Origin: Akkermansiaceae bacterium
GTDB lineage: Bacteria; Verrucomicrobiota; Verrucomicrobiia; Verrucomicrobiales; Akkermansiaceae
DNA length: 64,000 bases
Assembly: GCA_019634595.1 (NCBI GenBank)
Contig: JAHCBC010000002.1
Coordinates: forward strand, 124,001 to 188,000
Direction: 5' to 3'
Positions 1 through 43,686 of this stretch are shown here, one piece after another. The position numbers and the translations under genes are program-made. Below the pieces are notes generated by a model. That model had not been told where the DNA came from, searched no databases, and saw only the letters and a program-made list of their open reading frames with translations. The number at the start of each line of letters is the position of its first letter. Position 1 is the stretch's first letter.

Positions 1-1916
1 TGGCTGCCGCCGTTGTGGAAGACGGTCACGGGCACGTTCTTCGCCCGGTTGGCCTGGGCGGGCCAGCGGAGATAGACGGTGTAGCTCCCGGAGGCGGGCA
101 GGTTCGGGACGAAGCGCACGGATTTCGTACCCTGCCCGGTGTTGCCGTCGGTCAGGTAGTCCTTTCCATAGTAGCCGGACTGGGAGGTGCTCTCCGTCCA
201 CTGGCCGATCTTGATCGCGTTGTCGTCGGCGTTGTCAACGATGGTGCCGGTGCCCGCGCCGCCGTCGGAACCGGTGGTGAGCGCCTGCCTGTCCGCACGC
301 ATCTTCACCACCAGCTTCGCGTAGGGGACCTGCTGGACGGTGAGGCCATCGTCGATGGCGATGGATGCGGCGGTGGCGGAGGACTGGCCCAACCCCATGA
401 ACACCGGCTCCATGCGGATGGAGCCGAACGCCATGTGGGAGGAGGACAGGCACCAGGGGACGAGGAGGTTCTCGCACTCCCCCTGCTTCGGCACGATGGA
501 GCGGTAGGAGATGGGGTAGGGCCCGTTGGTGCGGTCCTGGACGTCGCCCTCGTTGCGGACGAAACCGTTCGCGTTCACGTAGCGCTGCACATGGTGGGAG
601 TCCATGGTGTAGGCGGCCATGCCGACGGAGTCCGGGGCGACCTCCGTGCCACGGCAGTTCTTCGTGCTCATGACGTAGTCGGAGACCATCCGCCGCGCCT
701 CGCGCACGTAGAGCTGGTAGGGCCAGTTGCCGTTGTCGGTGAACTCATCCTTCGGCAGGCCCCAGGTGGGGTAGAGACCGTCGGGGTGGCGGGCGCGCAC
801 CCGCGGGTGGTTCTGCAGCGTCCAGATGAGTCCGCGCTGCCAGTTCTCATGCTCCTTCGCCAGCGCGGTCCGCTGGGCGTGGTTCAGGGTGGCCCAGTTC
901 CAGCCCGGCCCGTAGTTCCGCCCGATGTAGTCGGTGGAGACGGCACCCGTATTGTTGGAGTCCGTCTTGCGGTTGGGCATGAGGTCCAGCTTGAAGAAAT
1001 TGTTGCCCTGCCCGGCCTCCACGGCCCGCAGGAGCAACTCGTAGTTGGCGGCGTCATACCCGGGTGGCTGCGCCACCATCACGCGGTTGTCCGCGCGGTC
1101 GGTGAGGCACATGCGGAAGCAATACGCCTGCAGCCGGTGGTCCGCCGTGCCGTTCGTGGCGACGGATGGCTCGATGCCTGGCAGCAGTCCGCTGGCGGGG
1201 TTCCCGGCGATCCGGTAGGCGCTGATGCTGGCGAGGTTGTTGGTGAAGTTGTGGCTGCCTTTCCCCACCTGCACGCCGCTGTTATCCTCCCCGTAAACCG
1301 CGTTCGCCTCCCGGCCGATGAACCAGCTCACCCCCGCCCCGGCCATCACGTCCCCTTCGTAGGATGCGTCGATGAACATCTTCCCGCGATAGGTTTCCCC
1401 ACCCTCCATGCGGAGGCCGGTGATGCGCAGGCCATCCATGACCACGCCGTCATCCAGGTCCAGCAGGCCGGTGAAGACGGGCACGTTCCACTCCGACAAC
1501 ATCTCGTTGAACACGGCCTCCGCCACCTTCGGCTCGAAGATGGAGGCGACCTGCGTGGTGTGGTTGAATGCCGCCGTCCCCTGGCCGCTCAGGTTCCGGA
1601 TGGAGGTCCAGTTTGGCTGCTGGGAGTAGTGCACGTACACCCGGTGGTAGAAGTCCCGGCTGAGGCCACCGAGGATGGCCGTGCTCCCCAGGTCCGTCCA
1701 GCCGAGGCCGCTGGAGGTGAGGCCGCCGAGGTGCGCGGTGGGGGAAACCAGCACGACCTTCTTCCCCATCTTCGCGGCCTGGACCGCGGCGGTGATGCCG
1801 CCGGAGGTGCCTCCGTACACGACGATGTCGAACTCATCCGGATGCGCGGAAAGCGCACCATGGATGAGCGGGAACAGGAGCGCGGCGAGCGCCCCGGCCC
1901 GGCCGGTGGGTTTCAT
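1..1916 (-). CDS. Secreted FAD-dependent oxidoreductase with C-terminal golvesin-like domain (partial)
   Basis: The frame runs off the left edge, so the C-terminus is missing. The start at 1916 gives an N-terminal signal peptide followed by a dinucleotide-binding motif (VVYGGTSGGITAAVQAAK) and a HLGGLTSSGLGWTD segment typical of the FAD-dependent oxidoreductase family often annotated as xanthan lyase-like. Conserved blocks include MFIDASYEGDVMAGAGVSW, DSHHVQRYV and YRSIVPK. The last visible ~75 residues (IGQWTESTSQSGYYGKDYL onwards) resemble the golvesin C-terminal-like carbohydrate-binding module. A shorter paralogue lies at 39060-40664. The substrate is unknown; export to the periplasm or outside is inferred from the signal peptide. 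Confidence 0.85.
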   Translation of the reverse strand, partial: MKPTGRAGALAALLFPLIHGALSAHPDEFDIVVYGGTSGGITAAVQAAKMGKKVVLVSPTAHLGGLTSSGLGWTDLGSTAILGGLSRDFYHRVYVHYSQQPNWTSIRNLSGQGTAAFNHTTQVASIFEPKVAEAVFNEMLSEWNVPVFTGLLDLDDGVVMDGLRITGLRMEGGETYRGKMFIDASYEGDVMAGAGVSWFIGREANAVYGEDNSGVQVGKGSHNFTNNLASISAYRIAGNPASGLLPGIEPSVATNGTADHRLQAYCFRMCLTDRADNRVMVAQPPGYDAANYELLLRAVEAGQGNNFFKLDLMPNRKTDSNNTGAVSTDYIGRNYGPGWNWATLNHAQRTALAKEHENWQRGLIWTLQNHPRVRARHPDGLYPTWGLPKDEFTDNGNWPYQLYVREARRMVSDYVMSTKNCRGTEVAPDSVGMAAYTMDSHHVQRYVNANGFVRNEGDVQDRTNGPYPISYRSIVPKQGECENLLVPWCLSSSHMAFGSIRMEPVFMGLGQSSATAASIAIDDGLTVQQVPYAKLVVKMRADRQALTTGSDGGAGTGTIVDNADDNAIKIGQWTESTSQSGYYGKDYLTDGNTGQGTKSVRFVPNLPASGSYTVYLRWPAQANRAKNVPVTVFHNGGS

Positions 1917-2045
1917 AGGGGTTTTGGGTTTTCCGGCGGGATGGGTTTTTTGCCGGAATCCGGGGATTCTCCGCGAGCGGAGCCGCGGTTCAATGAAAAT
2001 GTTCCGCCGAAAGTCACGGCGCGCCCGGCGGTCGCGGCCGTTTTT

Positions 2046-2900
2046 TCACAGCGGCTGCCAGGAATGCCTGGCCCAGAAGGCGCGCAGCTCATCCACGGAA
2101 CCGTTGAAGGCGTTGTGCTCCAGCGGACGGTCCATGGTGCCGAAATACTCCGGTGCCCTCCATGGGCCGTGGTTGTAGTGCTTCGAGTTCGACCGGCCCC
2201 GGCCCCACTCGACGCCACCATACTGCCACATCGCCCACTCATCCCAGATGCCATAGGCTTTCATGAGATCCCTCGGCGTGCGGAAGCCGTTGGTGTGGTT
2301 GTAGAGGGCGATCCAATACGGGCACTGGCGGATGCGGCGTTTCTCGGCGGCGCTGGCATTGCTGAGCGTCGCCCGCAGGCCGCCGCTGTTCTCCAGATAG
2401 ATGACGGGCAGCACGCCGGTTAGCTGCTCGATGCGGTCGATGAAACGCACGATGTCCGACGCGCTGGACTTCGTGTCGAAGTCGCCCACCAGCAGGATCT
2501 TCCGGCCCTGAAGCCCGCGCTGCGCGGCGATTTCCCGCAGGCGGCTGACGTAGCGGTCCGCCTGCCACACGGGGTCGCTGGTCTTCAGGACGAAGTAGTA
2601 GGTGCCCAGCATCATGCCCTCACGGTTCGCGGCGCTGAGGAAGTCGGCGCATTTCTCGTCGATCAGCGTGCCCTTTCCGGTGCGGGCGATGAGGCCGTGC
2701 GAGCCGTTCCGCCGCAGCGCGGAGACGTCATGCGGCGAGTAGGAATCCCCCGCCCGCTGCTTTTCCTTCGGGTCGAAGCTGGAGACGTTCACCACCTTCG
2801 GCGCGTCCAGCAGCGCCACGTTGCCGTAGCCGCCGCCACCGCAACTGTTGAGGACAAAGGGGACCAGCGGAACCAGCGCGAGGAGGAGACGTTTCAGCAC
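2046..2900 (-). CDS. GH25-like lysozyme family lipoprotein
   Basis: I chose the GTG at 2900 because it places a lipoprotein signal directly at the N-terminus (VLKRLLLALVPLVPFVLNSC, lipobox LNSC). The mature part has the layout of glycoside hydrolase family 25 (Chalaropsis-type muramidase): VNVSSFDPKEK, then MLGTYYFVLKTSD, LLVGDFDTK, PVIYLENSG and WAMWQYGG. In GH25 the catalytic pair is usually D-x-E; here the equivalent position reads D-F-D, so activity may be altered. A longer ATG start at 2963 is open but would bury the signal peptide. Predicted to be anchored in a membrane and to act on, or bind, peptidoglycan. Confidence 0.7.
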   Translation of the reverse strand: MLKRLLLALVPLVPFVLNSCGGGGYGNVALLDAPKVVNVSSFDPKEKQRAGDSYSPHDVSALRRNGSHGLIARTGKGTLIDEKCADFLSAANREGMMLGTYYFVLKTSDPVWQADRYVSRLREIAAQRGLQGRKILLVGDFDTKSSASDIVRFIDRIEQLTGVLPVIYLENSGGLRATLSNASAAEKRRIRQCPYWIALYNHTNGFRTPRDLMKAYGIWDEWAMWQYGGVEWGRGRSNSKHYNHGPWRAPEYFGTMDRPLEHNAFNGSVDELRAFWARHSWQPL

Positions 2901-2941
2901 GGTTCCAACCAAACGGAGCGTCCACCGGAAAGCAAGCGATC

Positions 2942-3159
2942 CTTCCAAGACACCCAGGGCCATCTCATTTCAGGCGTTGCCAGAGGAAGCAGGTGGATCA
3001 CCACTGATTTCACTGATTTACTGATTCAGAATCCGGCAATATGGCGGAAGAACGTCCATCCCTCCCTTTCTTCAATCAGTAAATCAGTGAAATCAGTGGT
3101 GAATTTTTCCAAATTTCGGGTGGAGCGTCCGAAATGAGGTGGCTCTTCCAAGACACCGC
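2942..3159. repeat. Palindromic intergenic element with 9-bp-periodic arms
   Basis: A perfect 29-bp inverted repeat (2998-3026 and 3074-3102) is built of ACTGATTTC-like units repeating about every 9 bp. It is nested inside a second inverted pair, GCCATCTCATTTC (2959-2971) and GAAATGAGGTGGC (3131-3143, one mismatch), and the word CTTCCAAGACACC occurs directly repeated at both outer edges. There is no coding potential. It lies upstream of the GH25-like gene and downstream of nothing on the plus strand. A related periodic palindrome is at 15393-15480. Confidence 0.75.
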
Positions 3160-3735
3160 TCACCGCTTCAGGTCCACGATCACCCCTGGCGGCGCCTCCG
3201 GCGGGCGGGATGCCTCCAGCCGCGCCCTCACGATCTCGTCCCTCTCGATCCCCCGCACCGTCGTTTCCGCCTGCACCTCCAGCAGGTGGTGCGCCCAGCG
3301 GCTGATGAAATACTGGCACAGCATCCACACCCCGGCCCCCAGCATGACGAGCAGCACCAGCCAGGAAATCCAGCCCGCCGCCAACGGCAGCCACTTTCCG
3401 GAAAAGCCTTCTCCGAGCTTCACACCGAGGGAGGCGGCACCGGCCAGGATCATCCAGCCCTTGTAGCCGGGGTCGGCCGCTCTCACGGAGTATGCCAGAC
3501 CGATCGCAACCGTCAGGAAATTCACCGCGATCCAGCCGTTGATCAGCCCGAGGGGCGCGAGCACGAAGTACCATATGACCCCGGAGCCTCCGGTGCTCCC
3601 GGAAGCCAGGAATGACGCGATCACGGCCAGCACGCCGACGATGCAGCCGGTCCAGATGGCACTGGCGAAGTAAAGGAGACGCTTGAAGATCGAGCCGACG
3701 GCCCCTCCGAAAACATCCAGCGGATCAAAGCTCAT
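3160..3735 (-). CDS. Multi-pass membrane protein of unknown function
   Basis: A 191-residue protein starting MSFDPLDVFGGAVGS. About four hydrophobic segments are visible (roughly residues 20-45, 50-82, 94-110 and 118-142), followed by a charged cytoplasmic-looking tail rich in Arg/Glu (VRGIERDEIVRARLEASR). No family motif is recognised. The gene ends 1 bp before the repeat element and is preceded by a PEP-CTERM gene 23 bp upstream on the same strand, so the two may be cotranscribed. Confidence 0.65.
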   Translation of the reverse strand: MSFDPLDVFGGAVGSIFKRLLYFASAIWTGCIVGVLAVIASFLASGSTGGSGVIWYFVLAPLGLINGWIAVNFLTVAIGLAYSVRAADPGYKGWMILAGAASLGVKLGEGFSGKWLPLAAGWISWLVLLVMLGAGVWMLCQYFISRWAHHLLEVQAETTVRGIERDEIVRARLEASRPPEAPPGVIVDLKR

Positions 3736-3758
3736 TTCCGGAAATCAGGTGGCGTGCA

Positions 3759-4562
3759 TCACGACCGGCGGCGTCCCAGCAGGAGGAGCGCACCAAACGC
3801 TCCCAGCACCGCCGCGGCCGGTTCCGGGATGGCGGTGAACGAGACATCATCGATGCCCACGGCGGCGCGGCGGTTGCCGCCGGTGCTGTTATCCGTCCAG
3901 CGGAGCCACAGCTCCTGGCCCTGTCCCCATGAGATGCCCGTCACATCGGAGGCCAGCACCACGCGGCCGGCGGTGTTCCCGTTGATCGCGCGCGACGACC
4001 CGCCGGAGGGCTCGGTCACCGGTGCGGTGAAGGTCAGCGCGGAAACGGAAGTCCAGCCGGAGGTCGCGCTGAGCGATCCGGTCCCCGCCGCGAAAATCTG
4101 GTAGTCGAAGGTGAGGCCGTCCGCGATCTCCCCGACGATGGCCCGCCATTGCTCACCGGCATACTGGAGGTTGAACGCGCTGATAATGCCCGACGTGTCG
4201 TTGGAGATGCTCACCCCGTAGCTGATCGCGGAGGTGCCGGAATTGTGGTTCTGTGAACCGAGGGCACGGTCGATATTACCGCTTGGCCCCAGGCTCTGGA
4301 TGGTTCCGACGGCTGCGGTTCCTCCCGTGCTGACGGTGTAACTGCTGAAAGAGGCGACCGGAGTGGGAATCCGGGAGACGGCATACCAACCGGGAATGGT
4401 CGAGTTGTCCGCCCACGCGACCGGGTCGGTGCCGCTGCTGGCCAGCGTGTTGAAGTTCTCCGTCAGCGTGGAGCCGTAGGTGGCATAGCTGATCGCGGCC
4501 TGGAGGGGAGTTGCCGACAATGCCAGCAACGCAGTCCGTAAAAGAAAGTCCTTGGGTTTCAT
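3759..4562 (-). CDS. PEP-CTERM sorting-domain protein
   Basis: The start at 4562 (MKPKDFLLRTALLALSATP) gives a clean signal peptide ending near PLQA; an upstream in-frame ATG at 4655 would hide it. The C-terminus is a canonical PEP-CTERM signal: IPEP, a hydrophobic stretch AAAVLGAFGALLLL and a final GRRRS. The body (TLTENFNTLASSGTD..., IPGWYAV, VGIDDVSFTAIPEP) resembles the beta-rich surface proteins commonly carried by verrucomicrobial PEP-CTERM proteins. Such proteins are exported, cleaved by an exosortase and surface-displayed or released. No exosortase is present in the window. Confidence 0.85.
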   Translation of the reverse strand: MKPKDFLLRTALLALSATPLQAAISYATYGSTLTENFNTLASSGTDPVAWADNSTIPGWYAVSRIPTPVASFSSYTVSTGGTAAVGTIQSLGPSGNIDRALGSQNHNSGTSAISYGVSISNDTSGIISAFNLQYAGEQWRAIVGEIADGLTFDYQIFAAGTGSLSATSGWTSVSALTFTAPVTEPSGGSSRAINGNTAGRVVLASDVTGISWGQGQELWLRWTDNSTGGNRRAAVGIDDVSFTAIPEPAAAVLGAFGALLLLGRRRS

Positions 4563-40698: not shown

Positions 40699-40970
40699 AG
40701 TAAGGAGGGAGGACACTCCTGTCCTCCGGCGGCATTGGCCAACAAAGAAGGAGAAGTTTTCAGTGTTCAGTTTTCAGGGAAGAGAAGAAGGCTGACCGAG
40801 AATCCTCCGAGCAAAGCGAACCTGAAGAGGTCCACATGGAATCTTTGCGCATTCTTCGCGACCTTTGCGGCTTTGCGGTGAATCTTTGATGATTCGCCAA
40901 TGCCGCCGGAGGACAAGAATGGGAGCGAAGCGGGCATAGCGGCTCTGCCGCAATGTCCACCCTCCTTACT
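40699..40970. repeat. MITE-like element with short periodic repeats inside
   Basis: Terminal inverted repeats of 16 bp, 40699-40714 (AGTAAGGAGGGAGGAC) and 40955-40970 (GTCCACCCTCCTTACT, 15/16 paired), plus a perfect 19-bp inner pair (40721-40739 with 40896-40914). Between them lie three heptamers TTTTCAG-TGTTCAG-TTTTCAG (40757-40777) and a set of TTTGCG-containing units about 9 bp apart (about 40840-40888). No gene is carried. The right terminus supplies the stop codon of the 40966-41580 gene. Confidence 0.85.
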
Positions 40971-41580
40971 TCCCCACGCCAGGCAGCTCGAGCAGGAGCT
41001 TCCTGACTCTCTTGGGAAGCCCGCTCTCCGCAAGCTTCCTCAGATCCGCGAGTTGCACTTCCATCCTGCGGCCGAGTTCCGATCTCCGCTGACGGTGATG
41101 GGGCGCAGCCCGTTCCGGATCCATTACCGGCGGCGCGCAATCCCGCATGGTATCCTCCAGCGTGGCGAGAGCCTCCGGGCCACCGCTCGTCCAGAATACG
41201 ATGCCGTCCCGCGAGCACAGCCCGATCATCGCGGCGGTGCCTTCGAGGAGATCCTGGAAGACAGTCTCCGGCGGTGCCTCGTCGATCGAGATTTCAATGT
41301 TCGACACCACAAGCTCCCTGAAGTTCACGAGCAACCTGAGCGCCTCCTGGGCGCAGACCCGGAAGATATCCGCATCCTCGCTTTCGACGACGTCTTCGTG
41401 TCCCATCCTGCACTCGAGGTGCCAGAGATGCTTGAGACCGATGAATTCGTCCCACTTGTCCCGGTAGCCCTTGGTGAGGTCCCCGAAATTGCACAGATGC
41501 CAGCAGGCCGACCACTTCGGCATCCTGACGCCATTGAAGTAAAACGGCGGCGGCCAAGCGTCTTCTTCTTCCCCGCTCAT
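40966..41580 (-). CDS. Unrecognised fourth protein of the MNIO cluster
   Basis: A 204-residue soluble protein starting MSGEEEDAWPPPFYFNGVRM at 41580, where its ATG overlaps the stop of the DUF2063 gene (ATGA). It has several Cys/His (SACWHLCNFGD, LWHLECRMGHEDV, FRVCAQEALR) and a basic C-terminal third. It is not a DoxX protein, the usual fourth member of bufferin-type operons, and I recognise no family. Its stop codon lies in the terminal repeat of the MITE-like element, so the original C-terminus may have been changed by that insertion. Confidence 0.7.
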   Translation of the reverse strand: MSGEEEDAWPPPFYFNGVRMPKWSACWHLCNFGDLTKGYRDKWDEFIGLKHLWHLECRMGHEDVVESEDADIFRVCAQEALRLLVNFRELVVSNIEISIDEAPPETVFQDLLEGTAAMIGLCSRDGIVFWTSGGPEALATLEDTMRDCAPPVMDPERAAPHHRQRRSELGRRMEVQLADLRKLAESGLPKRVRKLLLELPGVGK

Positions 41581-42491
41581 GGTTCTTCCTCCCCCATCGC
41601 CACCGCCTGTGACCCCATCTTGTCGAGACCGTTCCAGTCCATTTCCTCCACCGCCTGCTTCCTCGCAGGCATGAAGTCCACCACATCCCCTTCCGGTGCG
41701 GTGGCGATCCATCCCCGCTCCTGCCAGCTTGTGAACCATGCGGAAATTTCCTCCGGCTCCGGTTCGCGGCTCGCGGGTTCCGCGAAGAGGTCCACCAGCG
41801 TGCCGCCTTTCCGCAGCCGCAACAGCAACTCGTACTCCACATCGTCCAGACGGCACTGCAGCCGCCCGCGGTTCTCCCCGCGCCAGATGGCCAGCCGGGT
41901 AACGGCTTCCTCCACCGGAGCGAACGACTCCCACTCTTCGCACAGGTCCGCGCGCACGGGCAGCTCCAGCAGGATGACATGCGGCTGCAGGCCCAGCACC
42001 GCCATGGCCAGTTGCTCCGGCGCGACCGGCTCCCAGTCCGCCGCCTCGAAAATCTCCATGTAGGCGTACTCGATCCGTGCGAGCGCGGAAAACCACCGCC
42101 GCTCCGTTTCATCCAACGCGTCCCAGCCCGCGACGAACTCCGGCATCTTCCGCCCGAGGTGCCGCAGGGTGAAGCTGCCGGACGGACATGCCATCATGTA
42201 CGCCTCCATCAGGTCCCAGAACACCTGCTCCCCCGCCATCTTCCGCAGCACCGGAAAATCCTCCGCCACGGAATCCAGCACCCGGAACCAATACTGGCGG
42301 TGGTAAAGCTCCAGCCGTTCCTCCGAGGAAAGGTTCTGCCCCGGCTTCATCAGCTCCCGCGCCTTCGCCAGGAACTCCTCCGCGTGGCCCTCGTCGCTCG
42401 GAGCCAGCTCGGTGCTTTCCCGGCTGGTGCCGCGCAACGGCATCTGGATGGCGGCGAAAAACTCGCGCTGCATTTCATCAAGCGGCTTCAT
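41577..42491 (-). CDS. DUF2063 (BufC/HvfC-type) MNIO partner protein
   Basis: A 304-residue protein. I chose ATG 42491 (MKPLDEMQREFFAAIQMPLR). The N-terminal half has the DUF2063 pattern: EERLELYHRQYWFRVLDSVA, EDFPVLRKMAGEQVFWDLME, AYMMACPSGSFTLRHLGRKM and PEFVAGWDALDE. These proteins recognise the precursor and assist DUF692 enzymes; the old label 'putative DNA-binding' is not supported. The start overlaps the MNIO gene by 14 bp. The C-terminal half continues with a second helical domain ending in an acidic tail. Confidence 0.85.
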   Translation of the reverse strand: MKPLDEMQREFFAAIQMPLRGTSRESTELAPSDEGHAEEFLAKARELMKPGQNLSSEERLELYHRQYWFRVLDSVAEDFPVLRKMAGEQVFWDLMEAYMMACPSGSFTLRHLGRKMPEFVAGWDALDETERRWFSALARIEYAYMEIFEAADWEPVAPEQLAMAVLGLQPHVILLELPVRADLCEEWESFAPVEEAVTRLAIWRGENRGRLQCRLDDVEYELLLRLRKGGTLVDLFAEPASREPEPEEISAWFTSWQERGWIATAPEGDVVDFMPARKQAVEEMDWNGLDKMGSQAVAMGEEEP

Positions 42492-43341
42492 AACCCCCTC
42501 TCTTCTCCATCGCGGACGCCCGCCATGTTTCCGACTTCCGCGCCTCCGTCCACACTTCCTCGAACGAAGGGATCCGTCCGTCCCACTCCAGCAGCGTGGC
42601 GACATGCCCGCACCGTTCGATGGCACGTTCATAGAGCTTCCACACCGGATCGATCACCGGGTGGTCATGCGTGTCCACGATGAACCTCTCATAACGCGAG
42701 TGCCCCGCGATGTGGATCTGCGCCACCCGCTCCGGCGGCACGAAATTGACATACTCCAGCGGATCGAACCCGTTGTTGATGGACGAAACATAGATGTTGT
42801 TCACGTCGAGCAGGATGCCCACGTCCGCCAGCTCGCACACCTCCGCGAGGAATTCCCACTCGGTCATCTCGTTGCCGTTGAACTCGCCGTAGCTGCTCAC
42901 GTTTTCCATCGCCAGCGGCGTCTCCAGAAAGTCCTGCACCATCTTCAGGTTCTCCGCCGTCTTCCGCGCGGCCTCGAAGGTGAACGGGATGGGGAGCAGG
43001 TCATGGCTCATGCGGCCATCCACACTGCCCCAGCAAAGGTGGTCGGACACCCAGGGTGTCTTCGTCCGTCGGACCAGCCGCTTCAACCGCTGCAGGTGGT
43101 CCCTGCTCACGCCGCCCGCATTTCCCGGGTACAGGCCCACCCCGTGCTGGACCACGCGGTACTGCTCCAGGATCATGTCCAGCACCTCCAGCGCGCGCCC
43201 GCCCTCCACCATGTAGTTTTCCGAAATGATCTCGAACCACCCGACCGCCGGTTTTTCCGAAAGGATGTGCTGGTAGTGCGGCACCCGCAGGCCGATGCCC
43301 GTGGCAAGCTCCACTCCGCCGGTGAATTTCGACGCGCTCAT
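42478..43341 (-). CDS. DUF692 multinuclear non-haem iron oxidative enzyme (MNIO)
   Basis: A 287-residue TIM-barrel enzyme of the MbnB/TglH/BufB superfamily, which uses two or three irons and O2 to modify Cys (or other) residues of ribosomal peptides. Likely metal ligands are conserved: H66 (VVQHGVGLYPG), D100/H101 (VSDHLCW), E146/N147 (MENVSSY), D179/N182 (LLDVNNIYVSS), H210 and H214 (QIHIAGH), D223/H225 (VDTHDHPVID) and E252 (LLEWDG). It is encoded between a small Cys-containing secreted peptide and a DUF2063 partner. The product is predicted to be a modified metal-binding peptide. Confidence 0.9.
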   Translation of the reverse strand: MSASKFTGGVELATGIGLRVPHYQHILSEKPAVGWFEIISENYMVEGGRALEVLDMILEQYRVVQHGVGLYPGNAGGVSRDHLQRLKRLVRRTKTPWVSDHLCWGSVDGRMSHDLLPIPFTFEAARKTAENLKMVQDFLETPLAMENVSSYGEFNGNEMTEWEFLAEVCELADVGILLDVNNIYVSSINNGFDPLEYVNFVPPERVAQIHIAGHSRYERFIVDTHDHPVIDPVWKLYERAIERCGHVATLLEWDGRIPSFEEVWTEARKSETWRASAMEKRGGYEAA

Positions 43342-43360
43342 CCCTGTTGGTGGTTCCGGG

Positions 43361-43400
43361 AAAAAAGAAACCCCGCGGCACGGTGGCGCGCCGCGGGGTC
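43361..43400 (-). terminator. Terminator/attenuator between precursor and MNIO genes
   Basis: A 10-bp GC-rich stem, ACCCCGCGGC with GCCGCGGGGT (43370-43379 with 43390-43399), is followed on the minus strand by TTTCTTTTTT (43361-43370). It lies 11 bp after the precursor stop and 20 bp before the MNIO start, so most transcripts should end after the precursor gene, with read-through for the enzymes. Confidence 0.85.
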
Positions 43401-43410
43401 TCCGCGAAAA

Positions 43411-43686
43411 TCAGAGAATGGTGCCCTTCTTCTCTTCTTCCTTCTTCTTGCCCGGGCAATCATCCTTGTCCTTCTTGTCCTTGCCGGCGAGGAGGGTGCC
43501 TTTCTTCTCCTCTTTCTTTTTGCCGGGGCAGTCGTCCTTCTCCTTCTTGTCCTTGTTCGGGCAGTCGTCCTTTTTCTTTTCAGCGGCGACGGCCTTCTCC
43601 TGGAGAGGAGCGGCGGTGACGACGTTGGAACCGGCGGCGAGGACTCCGGCGACGGCGGCTGCAACGAGTGCGTTGGTGGCTTTCAT
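43411..43686 (-). CDS. Secreted Cys/Lys-repeat peptide, predicted MNIO RiPP precursor
   Basis: A 91-residue peptide with a Sec signal (MKATNALVAAAVAGVLAAG..., cleavage near residue 26) and a low-complexity mature part with Cys at 42, 53 and 77. Two near-identical units, KEKDDCPGKKKEEKKGTLL and KDKDDCPGKKKEEEKKGTIL, follow a shorter KKKDDCPNKDK. No other Cys is present. Long signal-bearing precursors with repeated Cys motifs next to DUF692 and DUF2063 genes define bufferin-like clusters, but the EGKCG motif of known bufferins is absent. A GGAACTT box about 110 bp upstream recalls ECF promoters, but I find no clear -10. Confidence 0.8.
   Translation of the reverse strand: MKATNALVAAAVAGVLAAGSNVVTAAPLQEKAVAAEKKKDDCPNKDKKEKDDCPGKKKEEKKGTLLAGKDKKDKDDCPGKKKEEEKKGTIL

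What the first reader, a model, noticed from the sequence alone, without database searches (positions are those of the whole stretch)
40966..43686. Four-gene MNIO (DUF692) RiPP-like cluster with an unusual precursor and a new partner
The sequence shows, in one direction, a secreted Cys/Lys-repeat peptide, a DUF692 enzyme with its metal ligands intact, a DUF2063 protein (14-bp overlap) and an unrecognised 204-residue protein (ATGA overlap). DUF692 plus DUF2063 next to a signal-bearing Cys peptide is the known hallmark of bufferin-type metal-binding RiPPs. Here the precursor lacks the familiar EGKCG motif and the fourth gene is not DoxX, so this may be a distinct, undescribed class.
Basis: partly seen in the sequence, partly recalled or inferred. 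Interest (0 to 1): 0.92.

Follow-up and report, generated by a model that had tools for sequence, protein, structure and literature searches.

The report
Cys-Pro bufferin cluster in Verrucomicrobia
A bacterium related to Akkermansia carries a three-gene set of the known bufferin type that likely makes an exported, copper-binding peptide; in this peptide all three cysteines are followed by proline rather than the lysine usual in its relatives, and the enzyme spot predicted to read that position has changed as well.

Summary
On the minus strand lie a secreted-looking Cys/Lys peptide, a DUF692 (MNIO) enzyme and a DUF2063 partner, then a 204-residue gene. The enzyme passes NCBI's bufferin-maturase cut-off (330.6 against 310 bits) and the partner's model matches NGO1945 and TglI: a bufferin-type core. 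The precursor is the novelty: a family with signal peptide, DDCPGK repeats and C-terminal IL (46 homologues at E<=0.1), found beside an MNIO in 22 of 22 genomes of its family that hold it. Relatives suggest it descends from Cys-Lys (BufA2-like) peptides. In the same clade the enzyme residue modelled in BufB2 to touch the Lys after Cys went from Asp to Ala to Gly, and DoxX left the locus (0 of 8 Gly loci against 46 of 54 Asp loci). The fourth gene is no partner: a cluster with a 99%-identical enzyme lacks it, 0 of 99 other MNIO loci hold it, and its homologues lie elsewhere. So: a new variant of a known kind, not a new four-gene class. Cys modification, export and copper binding are predicted, not shown.

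The parts
43411..43686 (-). Precursor peptide, 91 aa, with three DDCP[N/G]K repeats (Cys42, Cys53, Cys77; codons at 43561-43563, 43528-43530, 43456-43458) and C-terminal IL
   Evidence: family
43609..43686 (-). Apparent Sec signal peptide, about residues 1-26, also the most conserved part of the family
   Evidence: read by eye; no predictor run
42478..43341 (-). MNIO (DUF692) enzyme of the bufferin-maturase type
42577..42579 (-). Gly255, next to the proposed catalytic Asp254 (motif LLEWDG); Asp in 81 of 112 relatives compared
   Evidence: site named from PMC13097082, mapping inferred
41577..42491 (-). DUF2063 partner protein (PME type 1), predicted recognition and cofactor-tuning subunit
40966..41580 (-). 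204-aa protein of an unnamed, scattered verrucomicrobial family; passenger, not part of the pathway by this evidence

Best explanation
Window genes 43686-41577 are a bufferin-type cluster (precursor, MNIO maturase, DUF2063 partner) that likely makes an exported peptide whose three Cys-Pro cysteines are predicted to be oxidised to 5-thiooxazoles that would bind copper in the cell envelope. Steps inferred from studied relatives: the partner would hold the precursor, probably through its signal peptide, before export; the MNIO iron cluster would take four hydrogens from each Cys; Sec would export the peptide; the Lys/Asp/Glu spacers would keep the metal-binding groups soluble and apart. What the sequences show: in the MNIO tree, enzymes beside Cys-Lys precursors carry Asp after the proposed catalytic Asp; across the Akkermansiaceae clade this is Ala, with some precursors still of the CKGKDGCKG type; in its crown it is Gly, 9 of 11 precursors there have Cys-Pro repeats, and DoxX is absent from the locus. 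The 204-aa gene is a passenger absent from the same place in the nearest relative.
For: MNIO_BufB 330.6 bits over a cut-off of 310, while HvfB, ApyH, ChrH and MbnB models stay under theirs. Partner: PF09836 and a model (pLDDT 87) with only two PDB matches at E<=0.001, NGO1945 (3dee) and TglHI chain A. Precursor family: 46 homologues; 46 of 47 share the signal-peptide motif and 45 of 47 end in IL; 22 of 260 family genomes have it, 22 of 22 beside an MNIO. Series of precursor types on the enzyme tree. Asp enzymes: 76 of 77 with mostly Cys-Lys precursors; other residues: 9 of 28. DoxX near the MNIO: 46 of 54 Asp, 9 of 11 Ala, 0 of 8 Gly loci. Cu binding and 5-thiooxazoles are reported for such MNIO-PME1 products (PMC13097082, passages and sections; PMC12452194, sections).
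Against: No modification, export or metal binding was measured. The precursor matches no precursor model: no BufA2 hit for the window or for L075, L076, P0041, P0024, P0017; only weak, sub-cut-off hits in L067 (18.0) and P0043 (12.7), and even the Cys-Lys relatives tested (46.1, 36.0, 36.7) are under the cut-off of 60. The enzyme-peptide match is not strict: L067 and L074 have Gly with CKG/CSG repeats, L071-L073 Ala with CKG, and only 2 independent pairs agree, 3 do not differ, 0 disagree (p 0.5). The tree needs two changes of the Cys-Pro label, so it was gained and lost again or gained twice.
Confidence: 0.7

Rival explanations
1. The MNIO acts on this precursor but does other chemistry: Pro after Cys and the Gly pocket lead to another oxidation product or another target residue.
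For: FonBC rejects Pro in its repeats; the pocket residue differs from that of 81 of 112 relatives; MNIOs do modify other residues in other families (PMC12452194).
Against: The enzyme is over the bufferin-maturase cut-off, and Cys is the one residue kept in all repeats while spacers vary.
Confidence: 0.15
2. The Cys-Pro peptide is no longer modified by the MNIO and serves as a plain thiol- and charge-rich metal or protein binder; the MNIO is kept for another precursor.
For: Proline block in FonBC; PMC12452194 allows that some precursors act unmodified.
Against: The window's genome has only one match to the precursor profile, and the family was never found without an MNIO in 22 of 22 genomes.
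Confidence: 0.1
3. One reading: a four-gene system in which the 204-aa protein is a new dedicated partner.
For: ATGA overlap with the DUF2063 gene suggests coupled translation.
Against: Absent at this place in G103; 0 of 99 other MNIO loci hold a relative (some with short flanks); of the 10 other genomes with one, 7 have no match to this MNIO and 3 have it elsewhere.
Confidence: 0.05

Closest known systems
BufA2 (Buf2, Cys-Lys) bufferins with their MNIO and PME1 partner
   Same: Gene order precursor-MNIO-DUF2063, signal peptide, enzyme over the MNIO_BufB cut-off, relatives at 64-71% MNIO identity carry such peptides
   Different: Three isolated Cys-Pro repeats instead of six clustered Cys-Lys; no BufA2 model match; no DoxX; Gly instead of Asp next to the catalytic Asp
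Buf_EGKCG / oxazolin / fontiphorin (Lys-Cys captophorins)
   Same: Repeat-built, charged, secreted-looking precursor; MNIO plus PME1
   Different: No EGKCG; Lys follows by two after Pro-Gly rather than preceding Cys; MNIO 234 bits against the HvfB cut-off of 360; no Phe at the specificity site
Unassigned signal-peptide ORFs before bufferin-type MNIOs in PMC12452194 (section 15, Table S2)
   Same: Small ORF with 1-18 Cys and signal peptide just before an MNIO of the large cluster
   Different: Not described there as families; whether this peptide is in Table S2 was not checked, as supplements could not be read

Membership tests
Bufferin / captophorin cluster | MNIO of the bufferin-maturase family | tested here: met
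   NF050167 330.6 bits, cut-off 310
Bufferin / captophorin cluster | PME1 partner: DUF2063 domain plus RRE-type domain | tested here: met
   PF09836; model matches 3dee and 8hci_A. NCBIfam HvfC 34.7 bits is under its cut-off of 142
Bufferin / captophorin cluster | Cys-bearing precursor with Sec signal peptide just before the MNIO | tested here: inconclusive
   Position and Cys met; signal peptide by eye only
Bufferin / captophorin cluster | DoxX gene in the cluster (common, not universal) | tested here: not met
   Three DoxX genes in the genome, all on other contigs; 0 of 8 Gly-type loci have it
BufA2 precursor family | Match to NF050166 over the cut-off of 60 | tested here: not met
   No match for the window's peptide at E<=1
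Buf_EGKCG / oxazolin precursors | EGKCG repeats | tested here: not met
   Sequence of P0001
Bufferin / captophorin product | Cys turned into 5-thiooxazole; copper binding | not testable with these tools
   Needs mass spectrometry, NMR and metal titration
Aminopyruvatide cluster | MNIO over the ApyH cut-off of 400 | tested here: not met
   88.7 bits
New MNIO partner family (204-aa protein) | Recurs beside MNIO/DUF2063 genes | tested here: not met

The most novel reading that the evidence does not exclude
Cys-Pro captophorins: a lineage in which enzyme pocket and substrate changed together, so that a bufferin maturase that lost its Lys-reading Asp (Asp to Ala to Gly) now installs thiooxazoles on cysteines that precede proline, on a charge-rich tandem-repeat peptide of variable repeat number that works without DoxX. 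It would be a natural record of how an MNIO switches substrate.
Probability: 0.4. Interest if true: 0.65.

Novelty: new variant of a known kind. Interest (0 to 1): 0.5.

Why it matters
How MNIO enzymes choose which cysteine to modify has been probed mainly with designed repeats on one enzyme (PMC13097082). Here living relatives offer a natural series: Cys-Lys, mixed and Cys-Pro peptides beside enzymes with Asp, Ala or Gly at the very site that modelling singled out. Swapping enzymes and peptides between three relatives would test directly what sets the choice and whether proline is allowed. It also adds a conserved precursor family that the NCBIfam precursor models used here do not recognise.

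Tried and rejected
The 204-aa protein as a partner: rejected. Its function stays unknown: no Pfam match for it and only single weak hits among its 21 aligned relatives; a confident helical model (pLDDT 85) had no PDB match at E<=0.001. One neighbour in L056 looked immunity-like by eye; not tested.

The CbtA match of the precursor (21.7 bits, cut-off 30.7) covers signal peptide and Lys-rich residues; set aside as composition.

A strict rule 'Gly enzyme = Cys-Pro peptide' was tested and does not hold (L067, L074). A first tally left out L069 by a faulty filter; the counts used are. For one search the three most distant enzymes (L030-L032, under 45% identity) were dropped; seven of 112 rows had no usable precursor (one of them, L100, because the ORF picked was plainly not one).

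BufA2 scores do not fall smoothly along the tree: L075 and L076, which branch early, have none, while L067 in the crown has 18.0. I therefore rest the descent on repeat motifs, gene order and enzyme tree, not on that score.

The sequence search of the DUF2063 protein against the PDB found nothing; the fold search did.

Papers: listings; PMC12452194 outline, passages and sections 13-15, 17-19, 21; PMC13097082 passages and sections 7, 13, 14; PMC13419390 passages. The motifs CPGKDK, DDCPGK, KDDCPG and DCPGKK occur in 0 papers of this library; supplements could not be read.

Full report
What is there. The four ORFs stand as described, on the minus strand, with the stated overlaps. The window lies on contig C2 of a 5.09-Mb genome. 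G094, of the same genus, has its MNIO on a contig of 73,131 bases, the length and place of the match in Luteolibacter pohnpeiensis (L075); the closest named records are mostly labelled Akkermansiaceae. So the host is a Luteolibacter-like member of that group (inference).

The core is bufferin-type. The MNIO passes the NCBIfam cut-off for bufferin maturases and falls short of those for HvfB, ApyH, ChrH and MbnB. The DUF2063 protein has the Pfam domain; its model (mean pLDDT 87) has two PDB matches at E<=0.001, N. gonorrhoeae NGO1945 (3dee) and chain A of TglHI (8hci), which I take to be TglI. That is the PME type 1 layout of PMC12452194.

The precursor family. phmmer gave 46 entries at E<=0.1, 42 at E<=0.001. 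With the window's own, 46 of 47 share the signal-peptide motif, 45 of 47 end in IL, and Cys counts run from 1 to 7 (2 in 25, 3 in 11). Of 120 Cys past residue 35, 106 precede Pro (summed); all were found by likeness to the window's peptide, so this share is biased upward. In L046 the repeat is a charged Cys segment plus a short hydrophobic piece (GKDKDKDDCPGKDKEKKEETVLA), and the end GTIL of the window's peptide looks like the last, cut copy of that piece (read). A profile of 22 members found matches in 22 of 260 genomes of the family. In 15 of the 22 the MNIO lies in the first stretch of about 3 kb. Five more (G349, G350, G352, G353, G354) have precursor, DoxX and MNIO in that order, and G235 has MNIO, DUF2063 gene and a precursor on one contig. 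In G200 a precursor piece and the MNIO share a contig (L174).

Where it comes from. Outside the Akkermansiaceae clade nearly all enzymes with Asp at the site below have a Cys-Lys peptide such as HACKGHNECKGQGGCK before them. In the clade, precursors range from CKGKDGCKG repeats (L071-L073) and CSGK, CKGK, CNGK mixtures (L068, L076, L158, L159) to isolated CPGK or CPDK repeats. On the tree the clade of 20 is supported at 100/100; the Cys-Pro label needs two changes, which I read as one gain and a return in L067 and L074. BufA2 model scores are 46.1, 36.0 and 36.7 for three Cys-Lys relatives, 18.0 for L067, 12.7 for P0043 and none for L075, L076, P0041, P0024, P0017 or the window; the cut-off is 60, so no member tested is formally BufA2.

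The enzyme side. Gadgil et al. (PMC13097082) tie the residue after the catalytic Asp to the residues around Cys: Phe in Lys-Cys enzymes, Asp in Cys-Lys enzymes, where it is modelled to touch the Lys. I map that pair to Asp254-Gly255, because 3bww, close to HvfB, reads LLERDF where Cys-Lys relatives read LLEWDD; the mapping is mine. Over 112 enzymes the site is Asp 81, Ala 18, Gly 11, Gln 1, Ser 1. Of 77 Asp enzymes with a usable precursor 76 have mostly Cys-Lys peptides; of 28 others 9 do. On the tree two independent pairs agree, none disagree and three do not differ (p 0.5), so the statistical case is weak. By the tree, Asp was lost first and Gly came with the crown of 11, of which 9 have Cys-Pro.

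DoxX. Among loci with at least 2.5 kb on both sides it is found in 46 of 54 Asp, 9 of 11 Ala and 0 of 8 Gly loci (L069 and L189 are one contig from two sources, so seven distinct Gly loci, and some Ala loci are doubled in the same way). The window's genome has three DoxX genes, on other contigs. The fourth gene did not take DoxX's place in one step: DoxX is missing throughout the Gly lineage.

The 204-aa gene. G103 has the same cluster (MNIO 99%, partner 93%, precursor 97%) and the same flanks. About 0.6 kb is missing there, from the last codons of the DUF2063 gene to the last codon of the 204-aa gene. Homologues occur in 10 other genomes of 141 (28-48% identity), in mixed surroundings judged by eye. 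In the MNIO search of that order 7 of those 10 have no match and 3 have it on another contig or millions of bases away. None of 99 MNIO loci holds a relative, though some have short flanks. Gain here and loss in G103 cannot be told apart.

Verdict. Enzyme and partner are members of the bufferin families; the precursor fails the BufA2 and EGKCG tests and is filed as a derived variant. Export, oxidation of Cys-Pro and copper binding are predictions.

Noticed in passing
L002 (same genome, G000:C1:1328413-1332207), 671-3769, minus strand: The genome's second MNIO belongs to an aminopyruvatide cluster: ApyH 428.6 bits (cut-off 400), ApyI 257.7 (200) and a 73-aa ApyA-type precursor ending in WLYD, 85.0 (47); a P450 ORF matches ApyO at 345.5 bits, under its cut-off of 525.
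   Followed up: partly
about 90-100 bp before the precursor start in L045, L046, L047, L067, L069, L074, L149, L152, L155, L158, L159: A GGAATA[A/T] box at nearly the same distance in 11 of 15 upstream regions (mean 0.31 in 500 first-order resamples), possibly the -35 part of an ECF sigma promoter; not in the window, L044, L068 or L048. The sequences are related, so shared descent inflates this.
   Followed up: partly
L045 and L049 (both from G117): One genome carries both types of locus: a Cys-Pro precursor cluster without DoxX and a Cys-Lys precursor cluster with DoxX.
   Followed up: partly
L134 (MAG labelled Deltaproteobacteria): A bufferin-type MNIO (69%) with Ala at the specificity site and a Lys/Asp-rich precursor with CSGK repeats, perhaps a second, separate case of the same drift.
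   Followed up: no
window 40966-41580 and alignments A3, A4: The 204-aa protein belongs to an unnamed family of about 205-240 residues with no Pfam match for this member and no PDB fold match, scattered in Verrucomicrobiota genomes of this order.
   Followed up: partly
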